DNA from: Diadema setosum
Lineage: Eukaryota > Echinodermata > Echinoidea > Diadematoida > Diadematidae
Assembly: GCA_033980235.1 (NCBI GenBank)
Contig: CM067067.1
Location: forward strand, 25,767,603-25,831,602
Direction of reading: 5' to 3'
Length of the DNA: 64,000 nt
Shown: positions 54,132-63,449 of the stretch, one piece after another
How positions within the stretch are numbered: position 1 is the first letter of the stretch
Layout of the letters: each line of letters opens with the position of its first letter
Notes under the pieces: model-generated
The model's database searches: none
The model's input: the letters and a program-made list of their open reading frames with translations, nothing else
What the model was told of the DNA's origin: nothing
Translations under genes and position numbers: made by a program

Positions 54132-54341
54132 CTGTACGAGCTGATATTTTCGCGTACAGACATTTTCGCGAATTGCTACTTGGAGGACATTTTCGCGTGT
54201 TGTTAATTTCGTGGTTGCGAGGGTCTCACATGTTTTTATTTTCGCACGTTGTTATTTTCGCGTGATGTTATTTTCGCGGTTCAAAGGCGATTTGCGAAAT
54301 TCGCGAAAATAAAACCACCTCGAAAATTTCAGCTCGTACAG
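54132..54341. mobile_element. 210-bp TA-flanked MITE with TTTTCGCG repeats
   Basis: The ends CTGTACGAGCTGATATTTTC and their inverse with one mismatch are flanked by TA at 54130-54131 and 54342-54343. The interior repeats ATTTTCGCG at least six times. The style matches the TA-flanked element at 31350-31514 but the termini differ. Confidence 0.8.
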
Positions 54342-54988: not shown

Positions 54989-55301
54989 CTGTATAAGCAG
55001 TTACATTCGCGAGGGTTTAAGTTTAGTGAATTTAACAACTCACAAAAATGTTGCCATGCGCTAGGGTAATAGCGCATTGACAATTTACCCTTGGTGTCAA
55101 TTCACGAAAACAACATCTCAGGAAAATGTCTATGACCTGCTCATTTGCGAAAATACCTGTACGCGAAAATAACAGCTTGTACAAGGGTATTAGTGCATTT
55201 ACAATAAGCATTGGTTTCAATTCGCGAAAACAACATCTTGCGAAAATGCTGTGACCTCATTTGCAAAAATATCCATATGTCAAAATAACAGCTTTATACA
55301 G
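54989..55301. mobile_element. About 313-bp MITE with an internal duplication
   Basis: The end CTGTATAAGCAGTTAC pairs imperfectly with the right end, inverse CTGTATAAAGCTGTTAT. Inside, a roughly 120-bp unit is repeated in tandem (starting GGGTAATAGCGCATTGACAA and GGGTATTAGTGCATTTACAA). Both copies contain TTCRCGAAAACAACATCT. CGCGAAAAT blocks link it in style to the TTCGCG elements. Confidence 0.6.
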
Positions 55302-55602: not shown

Positions 55603-55848
55603 GAGTATGTCACAAATGTACACACAAGTAGTTATGTACAAGTATCAAGGCTGTATGCATGGTTGTTTTAATGTGTATGTACACAGGTGGACCAGAATAA
55701 TGGAGAACATTCTATATGATATAGATATAGTACATACAGGCTGACCAGATCAGTGGAGAATTTTCTACATGGTATACAATGTAGCTACAGTACATGTATG
55801 CATGTGACAGGAAATACATTATAGCTCACTCAATCTAGAATGATTTAA

Positions 55849-56207
55849 AGGCACAATTTACCTTTTGCATATGAAACAAAAACCCAGCATTAGTGCTTTA
55901 AAATAGTTCTAAAATGTGATTTAGGGATAGAAACAACCACTGTAAAAATTTGAATCCGTGTAATTGATGTCAAGTGTTGTTAAATACACAAAATATAAAC
56001 AATAGTTATAATAAAAATGTTTCCAGACTAAAGCGTATACAGTTACGGTTTATTGAGAAAAACACTGATATCTCCTTATATTTTAGGCTTTATTGCAAAA
56101 ATTTTATATGGTAGGATGTTTTATGATACAACAGACCTACACATATGAATCAAATGTGATATCTTGAACATTTTTGAAATCACTGCTCCCAAAGGTAAAC
56201 TGGACCT
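55849..56207. mobile_element. 359-bp TTAA-flanked MITE inside the 5' LTR
   Basis: TTAA lies on both sides (55845-55848 and 56208-56211). The ends AGGCACAATTTACCTTT and, inverted, AGGTCCAGTTTACCTTT differ at two positions. It is absent from the 3' LTR, where the empty site GATTTAACCC is intact. The insertion plus one TTAA copy is 363 bp, exactly the LTR length difference (1517 minus 1154). It sits in U3 upstream of the TATA box. Confidence 0.95.
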
Positions 56208-56424
56208 TTAACCCATTCCAGAAAATTCTGGGAAGTGCTGGCTGAGTGAGGCACTGCCCTTGTAGCCCAATGTGATTGGTAGTTAATTTTGGCAATGATG
56301 TTATGCACATATTAGGAAATGAGTCATCCAGGATTCCTGGAATTTGGACTTGCTAGTATGTTCAGGTATGTAGCCCCAGGTTGGAGAAAATTACAGAATG
56401 TACTAGAAAGGGGTGAATGGATAG

Positions 56425-56432
56425 TATATAAG
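56425..56432 (+). promoter_or_regulatory. LTR TATA box (5' LTR)
   Basis: TATATAAG in the context ATGGATAGTATATAAGCCGG, repeated at 62745-62752 in the 3' LTR. Transcription is expected to start about 25-30 bp downstream, which sets the U3/R boundary near 56455. Confidence 0.6.
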
Positions 56433-57128
56433 CCGGAGAAATTCTGCAGTAGGGAGAGTACCCAACACCTCTGCTCTGAGAGTTACGTCACTTCTGGCTC
56501 TGAAGGGACTTGTTAAAGTCAGTCCTGTGTTACCTGCTGACCTGCTATACAAACTGTGTTTGTGGAGATAAGGCCTGGGAGACATTTTGCCTGCAGAGAA
56601 TTAATTTGCCTACATTGGAGATAGACTCCATATTTTAGTGTCAACGGACATTATTACGGCAAAGCTGTGACGGGCTGGATTCCTTGCTGGACATTATAAA
56701 GTGAATCATCATTCAACGCATCAACTGGACGTGGTCGTCATAACGTTTGGATTTTGCACGTTTCGCCGTGGACATTTAGTATCGTGGACTTTGCCCCGGA
56801 TTTATAACACGGATTATTGCAACCAGCGCCTCGGGATTTACGTCGGAGGAATCATTCATTGGTGCGTCGCGGATCATTCATCTGTGCAATCGAACATTGT
56901 ATCTGGACACTACCGGGGAACTGTAGGGACTTTGTTCTTTATGATTTGGATGCATGTAAGTGATTCCATGACCGATTTGTAATTGTTTCTATTGATCATT
57001 ATTGTACTGATGTGAAAACCGATTACGAGTCTGTACCCACAATATCACTGTTAATAAATCGCCTGAACATTAGTTGATTGTTTCTTTTTGTGCGATCATT
57101 CTCAGAGTGATTGTGGTCGTAACAAAAT

Positions 57129-57146
57129 TGGGGGCTTGTGTCCGAG
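57129..57146 (+). other. Primer-binding site
   Basis: TGGGGGCTTGTGTCCGAG begins four bases after the LTR end. Its first eight bases match the proline-tRNA-type site known from gamma-retroviruses, with differences later. The primer tRNA is therefore probable but not certain. Confidence 0.5.
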
Positions 57147-57265
57147 AAGTGAATTTAAAGCCAAAACTTAGAATTTGGAACGTTCCGGAATCCAGAATAT
57201 TGGTACAGACAAAATACCAGTGAGTTGATTGTTCAATTGCATATTGTGTGTAATACATTGTGACA

Positions 57266-60200
57266 ATGTCAATCAGTACAATGGATGTTCAGGCATTTGT
57301 TCAGAGGACAGATTTGTCCCTCAAAGATTTGCAAAGGTTACGCAAATGTGATTTGACTGCTATTGCACAGCATTTAAATGTTGATGTTCCACAAGGTGTA
57401 AGAAAGGCAGAGATTCTTGACTTAGTAGCTGGTCACATGGAGCTCAAAGAAGAAATTGACACTCCAGTTCAAGCTCAAATTTCAGATCAAATACGGCTTG
57501 AGCTTGCTAAATTGGAAATCAAGGAGAGAGAAAGAGCAAGGGAACTAGAACTAGAGAAAGAGAAGATGAGATTAGAAATGGAAAGAGACAGAGAACAAAG
57601 AGAAATAGAAAGAGAGCAAAGGGCTAGAGAAATGGAATTGAGAGAAAAGGAACTGGAAATTAAGAAATTCGAAGTGGAGCAACAAGTGAAATTGCGTGAG
57701 ATGGAAATGGCTCATGCACATACTGTTGAAAATCGTGAAAGGGCTCCTCCTGAATTTGATTTGGCCAAGAACATTCGATTGGTGCCAAAGTTTGAAGAGA
57801 ACAGAGTTGATGCATACTTTGTGTCATTTGAGAAGGTGGCTAACAGTTTGAAATGGCCACAGGAATTTTGGCCCATGCTCCTTCAAAGTGTGTTTGTCGG
57901 CAAAGCAGCTGATGTGTACTCATCTCTCTCTGAAGAGCAATCACGTGACTATGCTACAGTCAAGAAGGCAGTGTTGAATGCTTATGAGTTGGTGCCAGAG
58001 GCATACAGACATAAGTTCAGAAATTCGTACCGCAAACCAGGCCAGACACATGTTGAGTTTGCTCGTGAAAAAGAAATGATGTTTGATAGGTGGTACAGAT
58101 CCCTGAAAGTGGATCAGGATTTTGATAACCTACGTGAGGTTGTTCTCTTGGAAGAATTCAAAAAGAGTGTTGCTTTCAGTGTGAGGTCGCATTTGGATGA
58201 TCACAAAGTGACAAGTTTGCATAAAGCAGCTTTGATGGCTGATGAGTATGAGCTGACCCACAGAAATGACAACAGACCACCTTTCAGGAATTTCTCTGGA
58301 AATAAGAGAGACAAAAATCAGTCGAGCAATCCAAAGAATGCTGGTTCTGAAAAAGGCACGAGTTCTGAAACTTCATCGGCACCAAAGCCTCAATCTGACA
58401 AAGGGTCCAGTACAAGTGCAAATGTCATCAAATGTTTTCACTGTAATAAGACAGGGCATGTAAAGTCACAGTGTTGGAAGTTGCAAAACAAAACGAAGAA
58501 GGACATGGGATTTGTCATGTCAAAAAGTGTCCTACCCGAAAATAGTGTCCCGTTCAGTGAAACACAGGCCATTGAAAGTCGATCTCCCAAATTCAAAGAT
58601 AGGACTAAGCAGGTGGATGAGAGCTATCGTTGCTTTTTGTTTGATGGTGAGGTGACCCCATGTACTTCTGGTGAGGCAGGTAAACCAGTAGTCATCCTGC
58701 GGGATACGGGGGCCTCTCAGTCGTTGATGGTGGATGGTGGTATGACTTTTCCACCAGATAGTGCAGTAAATGCAAAAGTCTTGATTCAGACTGTTGATGG
58801 CAGTTATATGTCAGTACCACTGTATAGAGTGGATTTGAAGTGTGACCTAGTTTCTGGTCCTGTCACTGTTGGAGTTGTTCCTGAGTTGCCCATGGTAGGC
58901 ATTGATTTCCTGTTGGGGAATGACTTGGCTGGGGACAAGGTGGTTGCGTCTCCAGTTGTTTCGGATAAACCAGTGGTGGTTGCTGAAACTGAGCAGTTGC
59001 AGGAGGAGTTTCCTGGGATTTTCCCAGATTGTGTTGTGACTAGGTCTCAGGCTCGTAGAGCTGTTCAGGATGATGCGGATTCTGTTGATGTGGAGGAGAA
59101 TTCCGGTGTTTGGTTGGCAGAAACCTTTTTCAAGGATTTGAATGATGGGGTTGCTGTATTAGGCTCCGAGGCTAACAGTGATGGGCTGTTTAGCAAGTCT
59201 TCCTTGGTTGAAGCACAGCAGGCAGACTCTGAGTTAAAAGGCTTGTCTCAGACGGCGTGTTCTGAGGCTGAGGCTGAAAAGGTCCCTGAGTGCTATTATG
59301 TCAAAGATGGCATTTTGATGAGGAAGTGGAGACCTCCCCATAGGCCAGCTGATGAGGATTGGACGGTGGTCCGTCAAGTTGTTGTCCCTCCCAGTTACCG
59401 CGGTGAGATCTTGAGGATTGCTCACGAGTTACCAGTTGGCGGCCATTTAGGCATCAGAAAGACAAAGGATCGGATCATGAGGCATTTCTATTGGCCAGGG
59501 TTGAATGTGGATGTGGCCGAGTTTTGCAAGACTTGTCACACATGTCAGGTGGCTGGTAAGCCACAGCATTCAGTGAAGCCGGCGCCGTTGATTCCGATAC
59601 CTGCGTTTGATGAACCATTCAGTCGGGTTTTAGTCGACTGTGTTGGACCTTTGCCTAGGACTAGGTCGGGTCATAAGTACCTCTTGACAATCATGGATAT
59701 GTCTACACGGTTTCCAGAGGCTATCCCATTGAGAAATATCACTGCTAAGACTGTGGTAGATGCTCTAGTGCAGTTTTTCACTAGGTATGGGTTGCCCAAG
59801 GAAGTGCAGTCTGACCAAGGGTCAAATTTCATGTCAGGCATATTTCAAGAGGTGATGTATTGTTTGGGTGTGAAGCAGCTGAAGTCGTCAGCTTATCATC
59901 CCCAATCCCAAGGTGCGTTGGAGCGCTACCACCAGACCCTAAAGACAATGATTAGGGCATTTTGTGAGGAGTATCCCGAGGATTGGGATAAGGGCATCCC
60001 TTTCCTGCTGTTCGCAACAAGGGACTCCCCAAATGAGTCGACGGGTTTCAGCCCATTTGAGTTGGTGTACGGTCATGAAGTTAGGGGCCCACTGAAGCTC
60101 ATCAAAGAGAAATTCATGACTGAGGATGATGAGGTCCACCTACTTGACTATGTGTCAAAGTTTCGTGAAAGGCTTTCAAAGGCTTGTGAGGTAGCTAGGG

Positions 60201-61975
60201 AACACTTGAAAGTGTCACAAGATTCAATGAAGAGAAAGGCAGACAAAAATGCCAAAGCCCGAACCTTCAAACCAGGTGACAAAGTTCTTGTACTGCTGCC
60301 CATACAAGGTGAACCACTGAAAGCCAAGTTCAGTGGCCCATACTGTGTCAAAAAGAAACTCAATGATGTGAACTATGTGATCAGTACGCCAGACAGACGA
60401 AAAGATCAGAGGGTGTGTCATGTAAACATGCTGAAAGAGTACTATGAGAGAAAGGCTAGTCAGCCGGTAGGCGTAGCTCAGGTGGTAGAAGAAGAAGTAG
60501 ATGAAGAGGGAGAAGCTCAAGATGAGAATGGAAGTGAGCCCTCTAGTGCCAGGTTGTCTAACTCAGAGATGTTAGGGAAAGTAGATGAGGCACTGAACTA
60601 CCTACCTGAAAATCAGAGGAAAGATGTGACTAGTCTGTTACATGAGTACAAAGAAGTGTGTAAAGACAAACCAGGTTGCACCCCTCTGGCTGTACATGAT
60701 GTTGATGTAGGAGATGCTGACCCTATCAAGCAAAACCCTTACAGGTTAAACCCGAGCAAACTGCAAAAAGTAAGGGAAGAGGTTCAATACATGCTAGACA
60801 ATGACATAATAGAACCGAGTAAAAGCAGTTGGAGCTCCCCAATCGTCATGGTGCCCAAACCGGAGGGGTCTCAAAGATTCTGTATAGATTACAGAAAGGT
60901 GAATGCCGTGACGAAAACAGACTCTTTCCCCATTCCCAGACTAGAAGACTGCATTGACAGGGTCGGAAATTCTGCATATGTCAGTAAAATAGACCTTCTA
61001 AAGGGATACTGGCAAGTGCCCTTGACCGACAAAGCCAGGGAGATTTCTGCCTTTGCCACACCAGATGGCTTGTTCCAATGCAAAGTAATGCCATTTGGCA
61101 TGAAAAACGCTCCGGCCACCTTCCAACGGCTGACAAACCAAATCATTGCCGGGCTTGACAACTGTGTAGTATACATTGATGACATTCTAGTGTATAGTGA
61201 CACGTGGCAGGAGCACATTACACACTTGCGGCAACTTTTTGATCGACTCAAGGAGGCCGGATTGGTGATTAATCTGGCAAAGAGTGAATTTGCAAAGGCC
61301 AAAGTGGTGTATCTCGGGCATGTAGTCGGTCAAGGACAGGTATTGCCAAGAGAAGCCAAGGTAGAAGCTATACTAGGCTTTCCCATCCCCCAATCCAAGA
61401 AGGAGTTGCTCAGATTTCTGGGCATGGCTGGTTTCTACAGGAAATTTGTACCAAATTTCAGCACTGTAGTCACCCCCCTAACAAACCTGCTGAAGGGCAA
61501 GGCAAAGTACACCTGGACTGATGAGTGTCAAAGAGCCTTCGAGAAACTAAAAGCAGTCCTTGCTAATGAGCCTGTTTTGGCAGCTCCTGACTTCCAAAAG
61601 CCATTCAAAGTGGCAATAGATGCTAGTGATGTAGGAGTGGGAGCGGTTTTGCTCCAAGAAGATGAAGAAGGCACTGAACGTCCGGTTAGCTACTTTTCCA
61701 AAAAGTTGAACGCATACCAAAAGAAGTACTCAACTATCGAGAAGGAGGCTCTCAGTCTCATCCTTGCCCTCCAGCAATATGAAGTGTACTTGACCAATAG
61801 CAAAGGGGAGATCACGGTCTATACTGACCACAACCCCTTGGTCTTTTTAGACCGGTTCAAAATGAAGAACAACAGATTGTTCAGATGGAGCATGATGACG
61901 CAGCCATATGCACTCAAAATCAAACATGTGGCTGGCAAAAATAATGTAATTGCTGACGCTTTGTCAAGAGTGTAA
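57266..61975 (+). CDS. Gag-Pol polyprotein, domain order Gag-PR-INT-RT-RNase H
   Basis: A single frame of 1569 residues from the ATG at 57266 (A at -3); a GTG six bases upstream is in frame but not a likely start. Residues about 25-58 form a SAP-like helix pair, 64-155 a charged coiled coil, and about 165-335 the capsid, whose end (240-332) resembles SCAN. A CCHC knuckle is at C390-x2-C393-x4-H398-x4-C403. The protease motif DTGAS starts at D480. The integrase has H720, H727, C757, C760, then D791, D850, E886 (DD35E) and a GPY motif at 1024-1026. Reverse transcriptase has D1243 and YIDD with D1305/D1306. RNase H has D1452, E1492, D1521 and D1564, and the protein ends five residues later. All catalytic residues are present. 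The single frame means Gag and Pol are made without a frameshift. Family assignment is established knowledge; activity is inference. Confidence 0.96.
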   Translation: MSISTMDVQAFVQRTDLSLKDLQRLRKCDLTAIAQHLNVDVPQGVRKAEILDLVAGHMELKEEIDTPVQAQISDQIRLELAKLEIKERERARELELEKEKMRLEMERDREQREIEREQRAREMELREKELEIKKFEVEQQVKLREMEMAHAHTVENRERAPPEFDLAKNIRLVPKFEENRVDAYFVSFEKVANSLKWPQEFWPMLLQSVFVGKAADVYSSLSEEQSRDYATVKKAVLNAYELVPEAYRHKFRNSYRKPGQTHVEFAREKEMMFDRWYRSLKVDQDFDNLREVVLLEEFKKSVAFSVRSHLDDHKVTSLHKAALMADEYELTHRNDNRPPFRNFSGNKRDKNQSSNPKNAGSEKGTSSETSSAPKPQSDKGSSTSANVIKCFHCNKTGHVKSQCWKLQNKTKKDMGFVMSKSVLPENSVPFSETQAIESRSPKFKDRTKQVDESYRCFLFDGEVTPCTSGEAGKPVVILRDTGASQSLMVDGGMTFPPDSAVNAKVLIQTVDGSYMSVPLYRVDLKCDLVSGPVTVGVVPELPMVGIDFLLGNDLAGDKVVASPVVSDKPVVVAETEQLQEEFPGIFPDCVVTRSQARRAVQDDADSVDVEENSGVWLAETFFKDLNDGVAVLGSEANSDGLFSKSSLVEAQQADSELKGLSQTACSEAEAEKVPECYYVKDGILMRKWRPPHRPADEDWTVVRQVVVPPSYRGEILRIAHELPVGGHLGIRKTKDRIMRHFYWPGLNVDVAEFCKTCHTCQVAGKPQHSVKPAPLIPIPAFDEPFSRVLVDCVGPLPRTRSGHKYLLTIMDMSTRFPEAIPLRNITAKTVVDALVQFFTRYGLPKEVQSDQGSNFMSGIFQEVMYCLGVKQLKSSAYHPQSQGALERYHQTLKTMIRAFCEEYPEDWDKGIPFLLFATRDSPNESTGFSPFELVYGHEVRGPLKLIKEKFMTEDDEVHLLDYVSKFRERLSKACEVAREHLKVSQDSMKRKADKNAKARTFKPGDKVLVLLPIQGEPLKAKFSGPYCVKKKLNDVNYVISTPDRRKDQRVCHVNMLKEYYERKASQPVGVAQVVEEEVDEEGEAQDENGSEPSSARLSNSEMLGKVDEALNYLPENQRKDVTSLLHEYKEVCKDKPGCTPLAVHDVDVGDADPIKQNPYRLNPSKLQKVREEVQYMLDNDIIEPSKSSWSSPIVMVPKPEGSQRFCIDYRKVNAVTKTDSFPIPRLEDCIDRVGNSAYVSKIDLLKGYWQVPLTDKAREISAFATPDGLFQCKVMPFGMKNAPATFQRLTNQIIAGLDNCVVYIDDILVYSDTWQEHITHLRQLFDRLKEAGLVINLAKSEFAKAKVVYLGHVVGQGQVLPREAKVEAILGFPIPQSKKELLRFLGMAGFYRKFVPNFSTVVTPLTNLLKGKAKYTWTDECQRAFEKLKAVLANEPVLAAPDFQKPFKVAIDASDVGVGAVLLQEDEEGTERPVSYFSKKLNAYQKKYSTIEKEALSLILALQQYEVYLTNSKGEITVYTDHNPLVFLDRFKMKNNRLFRWSMMTQPYALKIKHVAGKNNVIADALSRV

Positions 61976-62290
61976 TATGGAGAGTATCAAAGGTGAAAAG
62001 TTTTCACCGCATATCATTTACATTGTATGTGTTTAGCATATCCATTAATGTATGCAAAAAGTTTGACATGATTGTATAAGTTTCAAGAATACAAGCAATA
62101 TCAATGTAGATGGTATCCATGAAAAGAGAACATGGAAGTAATGAGGCTATTTAAAAGGCCTGTGATAGTATGTGATTATGGTTGCTTGATTTGGATTTTA
62201 CTTCACATTCATTGTAAATAACAATGAGAAAGTGTGAAGGTAAAAGAAACCCTTGCTACAGCAAGGCTTTCTTTTTCCCATGGGGGATGG
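61976..62290 (+). other. 3' non-coding segment and polypurine tract
   Basis: There is no env frame between the stop codon and the 3' LTR. The last nine bases, GGGGGATGG (62282-62290), form the polypurine tract expected to prime plus-strand DNA directly before TGTCAC. Confidence 0.7.
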
Positions 62291-63444
62291 TGTCACAAAT
62301 GTACACACAAGTAGTTATGTACAAGTATCAAGGCTGTATGCATGGTTGTTTTAATGTGTATGTACACAGGTGGACCAGAATAATGGAGAACATTCTATAT
62401 GATATAGATATAGTACATACAGGCTGACCAGATCAGTGGAGAATTTTCTACATGGTATACAATGTAGCTACAGTACATGTATGCATGTGACAGGAAATAC
62501 ATTATAGCTCACTCAATCTGGAATGATTTAACCCATTCCAGAAAATTCTGGGAAGTGCTGGCTGAGTGAGGCACTGCCCTTGTAGCCCAATGTGATTGGT
62601 AGTTAATTTTGGCAATGATGTTATGCACATATTAGGAAATGAGTCATCCAGGATTCCTGGAATTTGGACTTGCTAGTATGTTCAGGTATGTAGCCCCAGG
62701 TTGGAGAAAATTACAGAATGTACTAGAAAGGGGTGAATGGATAGTATATAAGCCGGAGAAATTCTGCAGTAGGGAGAGTACCCAACACCTCTGCTCTGAG
62801 AGTTACGTCACTTCTGGCTCTGAAGGGACTTGTTAAAGTCAGTCCTGTGTTACCTGCTGACCTGCTATACAAACTGTGTTTGTGGAGATAAGGCCTGGGA
62901 GACATTTTGCCTGCAGAGAATTAATTTGCCTACATTGGAGATAGACTCCATATTTTAGTGTCAACGGACATTATTACGGCAAAGCTGTGACGGGCTGGAT
63001 TCCTTGCTGGACATTATAAAGTGAATCATCATTCAACGCATCAACTGGACGTGGTCGTCATAACGTTTGGATTTTGCACGTTTCGCCGTGGACATTTAGT
63101 ATCGTGGACTTTACCCCGGATTTATAACACGGATTATTGCAACCAGCGCCTCGGGATTTACGTCGGAGGAATCATTCATTGGTGCGTCGCGGATCATTCA
63201 TCTGTGCAATCGAACATTGTATCTGGACACTACCGGGGAACTGTAGGGACTTTGTTCTTTATGATTTGGATGCATGTAAGTGATTCCATGACCGATTTGT
63301 AATTGTTTCTATTGATCATTATTGTACTGATGTGAAAACCGATTACGAGTCTGTACCCACAATATCACTGTTAATAAATCGCCTGAACATTAGTTGATTG
63401 TTTCTTTTTGTGCGATCATTCTCAGAGTGATTGTGGTCGTAACA
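62291..63444 (+). repeat. 3' LTR (1154 bp)
   Basis: The uninterrupted LTR, with its TATA box at 62745-62752, AATAAA at 63373-63378 and terminal CA at 63443-63444. It carries the empty site for the MITE found in the 5' LTR and so shows the original structure. Confidence 0.95.
63373..63378 (+). terminator. Polyadenylation signal of the retrotransposon
   Basis: AATAAA in CTGTTAATAAATCG, also at 57053-57058 in the 5' LTR. It is the only canonical signal in the LTR and sits about 65 bp before the LTR end, as expected for the R/U5 junction. Confidence 0.65.
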
Positions 63445-63449
63445 GAGTA

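What the first reader, a model, noticed from the sequence alone, without database searches (positions are those of the whole stretch)
57266..61975. Intact Ty3/gypsy-type element with integrase placed before reverse transcriptase
Direct reading gives the order CCHC, DTGAS protease, H2C2 plus DD35E integrase with GPY motif, then RT (YIDD) and RNase H at the very C-terminus. Canonical Ty3/gypsy elements put integrase last. The RT, RNase H and GPY motif are gypsy-like, so this is not a Ty1/copia element. It fits the published Gmr1-like group of deuterostomes. The copy has no stop, frameshift or missing catalytic residue over 1569 codons. That is rare for such elements and makes it a good type copy for studying how the swapped order works.
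Basis: partly seen in the sequence, partly recalled or inferred. Interest (0 to 1): 0.9.

Follow-up and report, generated by a model that had tools for sequence, protein, structure and literature searches.

The report
Young Gmr1-type retrotransposon, swapped pol order
This is a complete, recently inserted jumping element of a known animal family whose enzymes sit in an unusual order; many near-identical copies lie in the same genome, so the copy is typical rather than rare.

Summary
Window 57266-61975 is one open frame of 1569 codons: Gag (SCAN-like capsid, CCHC), protease, integrase, reverse transcriptase, RNase H. Against Ty3 Gag-Pol the two blocks match in exchanged order. The true unit is 55608-63444, with 1154-bp LTRs differing at 2 of 1154 sites and a GAGTA target duplication.

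The arrangement is the published Gmr1 group, also reported from crustaceans and an annelid. This copy is not rare: 30 of 30 scored matches in its genome, itself included, have no internal stop, and 9 of 20 other copies show no LTR substitution. It is not pristine: a 359-bp insertion splits its 5' LTR.

Added here: the same genome holds canonical-order gypsy elements; profile comparison places the swap breakpoints in linkers. A hairpin holds the U-rich box before the polypurine tract, and a 61%-identical relative keeps it with three two-sided pair changes, counted by eye. Verdict: new member of a known kind.

The parts
55603..55607 (.). 5' target-site duplication GAGTA
55608..57124 (+). 5' LTR (TG...CA), 1154 bp plus 363 extra bp
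55849..56207 (.). 359-bp insertion in the 5' LTR with inverted ends AGGCACAATTTACCTTT / AGGTCCAGTTTACCTTT and TTAA on both sides; absent from the 3' LTR; resembles a nonautonomous DNA transposon
   Evidence: boundaries read by eye, a 5-bp TTTAA duplication is also possible
57129..57146 (+). putative primer-binding site TGGGGGCTTGTGTCCGAG; resembles a tRNA-Pro primer site by recall, not confirmed
   Evidence: one search found no match to a strict tRNA-Pro pattern
57266..61975 (+). single Gag-Pol frame, 1569 codons plus stop
57746..58300 (+). capsid region (residues 161-345); Pfam SCAN at 244-333 (57995-58264)
   Evidence: outer limits from conservation
58427..58474 (+). CCHC zinc knuckle (residues 388-403)
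   Evidence: below the curated cut-off
58676..58975 (+). aspartic protease (about residues 471-570), DTGAS at 480-484
   Evidence: sequence reading; invariant columns
59336..60460 (+). integrase: H2C2, DD35E core, GPY-bearing C-terminal part (residues 691-1065)
60692..61513 (+). reverse transcriptase (residues 1143-1416)
61514..61972 (+). RNase H, ending ADALSRV before the stop
62242..62275 (+). hairpin holding the U-rich box, 6 nt before the polypurine tract
62282..62290 (+). short polypurine tract GGGGGATGG
   Evidence: sequence reading
62291..63444 (+). 3' LTR, 1154 bp, uninterrupted
63445..63449 (.). 3' target-site duplication GAGTA

Best explanation
A complete LTR retrotransposon of the Gmr1 type (Ty3/gypsy), one of many young copies of a recently active family, in what is probably a sea urchin. 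Inferred life cycle: RNA is made from the LTR, translated as one Gag-Pol polyprotein, assembled into particles, cut by the protease, copied by RT/RNase H from a tRNA primer and a polypurine tract, and inserted by integrase with a short target duplication. The swapped order should not matter once the protease has released the enzymes. The swap is best read as one old exchange of two modules, [N-terminal extension + integrase] and [pre-RT segment + RT + RNase H], with joints in linkers. Shown here: anatomy, order, multiple copies, low LTR divergence, purifying selection, linker homologies. Inferred: every biochemical step, and that the exchange happened once.
For: Domains and order. Ty3 alignment: query 1143-1568 to Ty3 585-1008, query 693-1067 to Ty3 1077-1452. 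30 of 30 scored own-genome matches without internal stop, window copy included, out of 4216 first-look candidates. All 20 other copies fetched have two LTRs matched end to end; 9 of 20 have no LTR substitution; 18 of 20 have a 4-bp target duplication by reading the printed flanks. Mean dN 0.010, dS 0.065, ratio 0.16, and 0.03 in RT, over 210 pairs of 21 copies. Of 152 proteins of this type (query included) 151 have integrase core and RT, integrase first in 151 of 151; of 123 canonical ones 121 have RT first and 2 are cut short. The integrase-first set is separate in the RT-RH tree (23 against 22, support 0.98) and the integrase tree (26 against 20, support 0.88). Linker homologies E=7.6e-28 and 3.5e-10.
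Against: No labelled cod Gmr1 sequence was obtained, so membership was tested by order, domains and separation from canonical elements, not by a tree with the type element. The canonical set was gathered by similarity to one host element (L032), so the sister group is unresolved. Homolog lists show only the 120 best per query, which favours one order. No expression data. The host is inferred from named relatives. The primer tRNA was not confirmed.
Confidence: 0.95

Rival explanations
1. A Ty1/copia element, in which integrase before RT is normal.
For: Domain order only.
Against: Pfam gives RVT_1, RT_RNaseH and H2C2 and no RVT_2 at E<=1; the best solved relative is Ty3, collinear within each block.
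Confidence: 0.01
2. The order is an assembly or sequencing error.
For: None found.
Against: 30 of 30 scored loci of the own genome match along the frame; 151 of 151 relatives with both domains have integrase first.
Confidence: 0.005
3. A canonical gypsy element rearranged recently in this host.
For: The host also holds canonical-order gypsy elements.
Against: Integrase-first elements form a separate group in the RT-RH and integrase trees, and occur in sea cucumbers, molluscs, a fish and a sponge, so the swap is old.
Confidence: 0.01
4. The swap arose by tandem duplication and deletion and left a remnant of the pre-RT motif (E-x-P-x-LFP) after the protease.
For: Weak: 15-16 columns, E 0.0088 (Prob 4.6) and 0.023 (Prob 2.1); the score of 18.1 exceeded 26 control comparisons, whose best was 16.8.
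Against: The protease-integrase linker does not match the canonical protease-RT linker (Prob 0.6).
Confidence: 0.1

Closest known systems
Gmr1 group (Goodwin and Poulter 2002; paper not read, cited in passages of PMC8220671, PMC6238403, PMC3587641)
   Same: Ty3/gypsy enzymes with integrase upstream of RT; SCAN-like domain in gag (PMC3424704 and PMC4131045, passages)
   Different: A family in an unnamed, probably echinoid, genome; not compared with the type sequence
Gmr1-Gmr4 of Tetraodontiformes (PMC11117352, passages)
   Same: Joint Gag-Pol of 1506-1634 aa; young copies with LTRs
   Different: LTRs there 337-518 bp, here 1154 bp
LGF3 of Lamellibrachia (PMC8220671) and GyRex4 of shrimp / Saugg1 of bream (PMC3587641), passages
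   Same: Placed in or near Gmr1 by those authors
   Different: Other hosts; not aligned here
Ty3 of yeast (PDB 7q5b, 4ol8)
   Same: Homologous RT-RNase H and integrase blocks
   Different: Integrase last

Membership tests
Gmr1 group | Integrase lies upstream of RT | tested here: met
Gmr1 group | RT, RNase H and integrase of Ty3/gypsy type | tested here: met
Gmr1 group | SCAN-like domain in gag | tested here: met
   PF02023, 29.9 bits against a cut-off of 27
Gmr1 group | RT and integrase group with the type element (cod Gmr1) | not tested
   No labelled type sequence obtained; only separation from canonical elements was tested
LTR retrotransposon | Paired LTRs with TG...CA ends and a target duplication | tested here: met
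LTR retrotransposon | Primer site matching a host tRNA | tested here: inconclusive
   Resembles tRNA-Pro by recall; strict pattern gave 0 matches; looser pattern not answered
Ty1/copia | Copia-type RT (RVT_2) | tested here: not met
   Not among the 13 families at E<=1

The most novel reading that the evidence does not exclude
Gmr1-type elements carry a conserved cis-acting hairpin that holds the U-rich box just before the polypurine tract, a structured plus-strand priming site. Here the stem is AAAAGAAA / CCUUGC / loop / GCAAGG / UUUCUUUU; the loop is UACG in 20 of 20 other copies and UACA in the window copy. In a 61%-identical relative (L029) seven lower-stem pairs are the same and three upper-stem pairs differ on both sides, counted by eye. 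I saw no description of it in one paper listing.
Probability: 0.35. Interest if true: 0.4.

Novelty: new member of a known kind. Interest (0 to 1): 0.22.

Why it matters
The order itself is published, so the locus is not a discovery. Its use is practical: a genome with many young copies of a swapped-order family beside canonical-order elements lets one compare how the two arrangements are expressed and processed in the same cells. The linker mapping gives a concrete model, in which whole modules moved with their own upstream segments and no enzyme was cut. The hairpin, if it holds across the group, would be a new cis signal. Molluscan, crustacean, annelid and sponge members make 'a group of deuterostomes' too narrow.

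Tried and rejected
Remnant of duplication: the post-protease motif against the pre-RT segment is weak, dropped. RNA element in the stretch of low synonymous diversity (codons about 585-705; the lowest 90- and 120-codon windows fell below all 500 codon permutations, the lowest 60-codon window did not; chosen after the fact): three folds there gave z -0.31, 0.05 and -0.77; left unexplained, recombination among copies is as likely. Rfam: no match in the window at gathering scores. Relatives in viral contigs: none. Hairpin further afield: L029 has z -0.48, L030 folds into a different hairpin with z -0.78, L031 has a U-rich box but no like hairpin in the fold; so the case for L029 rests on pair changes and not on energy, and the tool alignment A2 does not put L029 in register. 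tRNA-Pro not confirmed. Copies of the 5' LTR insertion and copia elements in the host: searches not answered.

Full report
Translating 57266-61975 gives 1569 residues and a terminal stop; it is the only ORF of 200 aa or more in the window. Pfam places SCAN, CCHC (below cut-off), H2C2, integrase core, Integrase_p58_C, RVT_1 and RNase H in that order. No protease family was reported, but DTGAS is present and its D and T are invariant among 15 relatives. phmmer against solved structures ranks Ty3 first. The alignment to Ty3 Gag-Pol shows exchanged blocks: residues 1143-1568 match Ty3 585-1008 and residues 693-1067 match Ty3 1077-1452. The frame stops one residue after the RNase H end motif ADALSR, where Ty3 and L032 run on towards integrase.

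The finding's coordinates cover only the frame. The element runs from 55608 to 63444. Its LTRs begin TGTCAC and end GTAACA, are 1154 bp, and differ at 2 of 1154 sites once the insertion is set aside. GAGTA flanks both sides. The 5' LTR carries an extra 363 bp that the 3' LTR lacks. Read as 359 bp with AGG-type inverted ends and a duplicated TTAA (by eye), it looks like a nonautonomous DNA transposon that arrived after the element itself, since both LTRs are made from one template (established knowledge). It lies about 220 bp upstream of a TATATAAG box (sequence reading); its effect is unknown.

The copy is not exceptional. The window lies in an 886-Mb assembly of 96 contigs. Of 4216 first-look candidates 30 were scored, the window copy among them. 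All 30 match without an internal stop at 97-100% protein identity; 28 of 30 cover residues 1-1569, one begins at 9 and one ends at 1559. The other 4186 were not scored, so the number of broken copies is unknown. I fetched 20 of the other 29. All 20 have two LTRs matched end to end, so none has the insertion (5' LTRs 1130-1175 bp); 9 of 20 have no LTR substitution, 8 of these no difference at all; by reading the printed flanks 18 of 20 have a 4-bp target duplication, L009 and L024 none. The window copy's duplication of 5 bp is the odd one. L025 ends its frame early in the RNase H tail, and L009 lacks the usual start, so it was read from an internal Met. Over 210 pairs of 21 copies mean dN is 0.010 and dS 0.065, a ratio of 0.16 and 0.03 in RT, which fits spread under selection for working enzymes.

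The order is a property of a clade. Two protein searches returned 152 distinct proteins including the query (120 best of 2416 and of 1766). One lacks RT; the other 151 have integrase first. An RVT_1 scan of the own genome scored 150 of 13578 candidates. Three stretches chosen from it hold gypsy elements: L032 has protease-RT-RNase H-integrase order, collinear with Ty3; L034 has RT and RNase H before the start of H2C2; L033 is cut before any integrase. Of 123 canonical proteins (120 and these three) 121 have RT first and 2, L033 and L034, are cut short. With every sixth sequence of each set and the three loci, less those lacking a domain, the integrase-first group is separate in the RT-RH tree (23 against 22, support 0.98) and in the integrase tree (26 against 20, support 0.88). 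A tree of 15 sequences, the window and 14 relatives with names, puts the window with Lytechinus and Diadema elements on integrase (0.92-0.95); its RT-RH place has support 0.28 and its capsid place is unresolved. The best-scoring named relatives are Lytechinus and Diadema, so the host is probably an echinoid; that is inference. A protein of the sponge Dysidea avara from a 65-Mb contig (P0076) has the same order.

How the swap was made can be bounded. Profile comparison shows that the second half of the Gmr1 protease-integrase linker is homologous to the canonical RNase H-integrase linker (Prob 96.7, E 3.5e-10, 82 columns), and the Gmr1 integrase-RT linker to the canonical protease-RT linker (Prob 99.8, E 7.6e-28, 111 columns); part of each match is the adjoining domain (151 Gmr1 sequences, 119 and 99 of 121 canonical ones after length filters). 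So the modules moved with their own upstream segments and the joints fall in linkers. The first half of the protease-integrase linker has no detected canonical counterpart. A suspected remnant of the pre-RT motif there did not hold up.

Two side observations. First, a hairpin at 62242-62275 lies 6 nt before the polypurine tract (z -4.1 for 47 nt of the window; z -2.9 in L010). In 20 of 20 other copies the loop reads UACG, in the window UACA; L018 has one stem mismatch. In L029, a 61%-identical relative, seven lower-stem pairs are the same and three upper-stem pairs differ on both sides, by eye; its folding energy is not unusual (z -0.48), and L030 and L031 do not show the same hairpin. One paper search (15 of 57 listed, listing only) showed no counterpart in titles or abstracts. 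Second, synonymous diversity is low across codons 585-705; I cannot explain it.

Literature, as seen: passages of PMC8220671, PMC3587641, PMC4131045, PMC8556966, PMC3424704, PMC2774666, PMC6238403 and PMC11117352. They state the Gmr1 order, its presence in crustaceans and an annelid, the SCAN link and young fish copies. The 2002 founding paper was not read. A search for Gmr1 with sponge and gypsy held 4 papers (listing); the Gmr1 passages I saw in two of them do not mention sponges.

Verdict: correct observation, known kind of element, ordinary in its genome. Interest is low, with modest value from the linker mapping and the hairpin.

Noticed in passing
window 55849-56207: TTAA-flanked 359-bp insertion with inverted ends inside the 5' LTR, absent from the 3' LTR and from the 20 other copies fetched.
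   Followed up: partly
window 62242-62275: Hairpin holding the U-rich box before the polypurine tract; UACG loop in 20 of 20 other copies, UACA here.
   Followed up: partly
window 59018-59380 (codons 585-705 of the frame): Synonymous differences among 21 copies are about five times rarer here than the mean of the frame.
   Followed up: partly
L029 1-6369: A contig filed under a bacterial MAG is a whole animal-type retroelement with a 129-bp terminal overlap (one-LTR circle or collapsed LTRs); probably a eukaryotic contaminant.
   Followed up: partly
L030, L031: Contigs filed under a Heimdallarchaeota MAG encode Gmr1-type proteins, so they are probably animal contamination.
   Followed up: no
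window 54133-54173 and 55143-55183: Inverted repeat of 41 nt, 88% complementary, 969 nt apart, just upstream of the element; perhaps another mobile element.
   Followed up: no
database protein P0076 (Dysidea avara): Gmr1-type order with SCAN in a sponge, outside bilaterians.
   Followed up: partly
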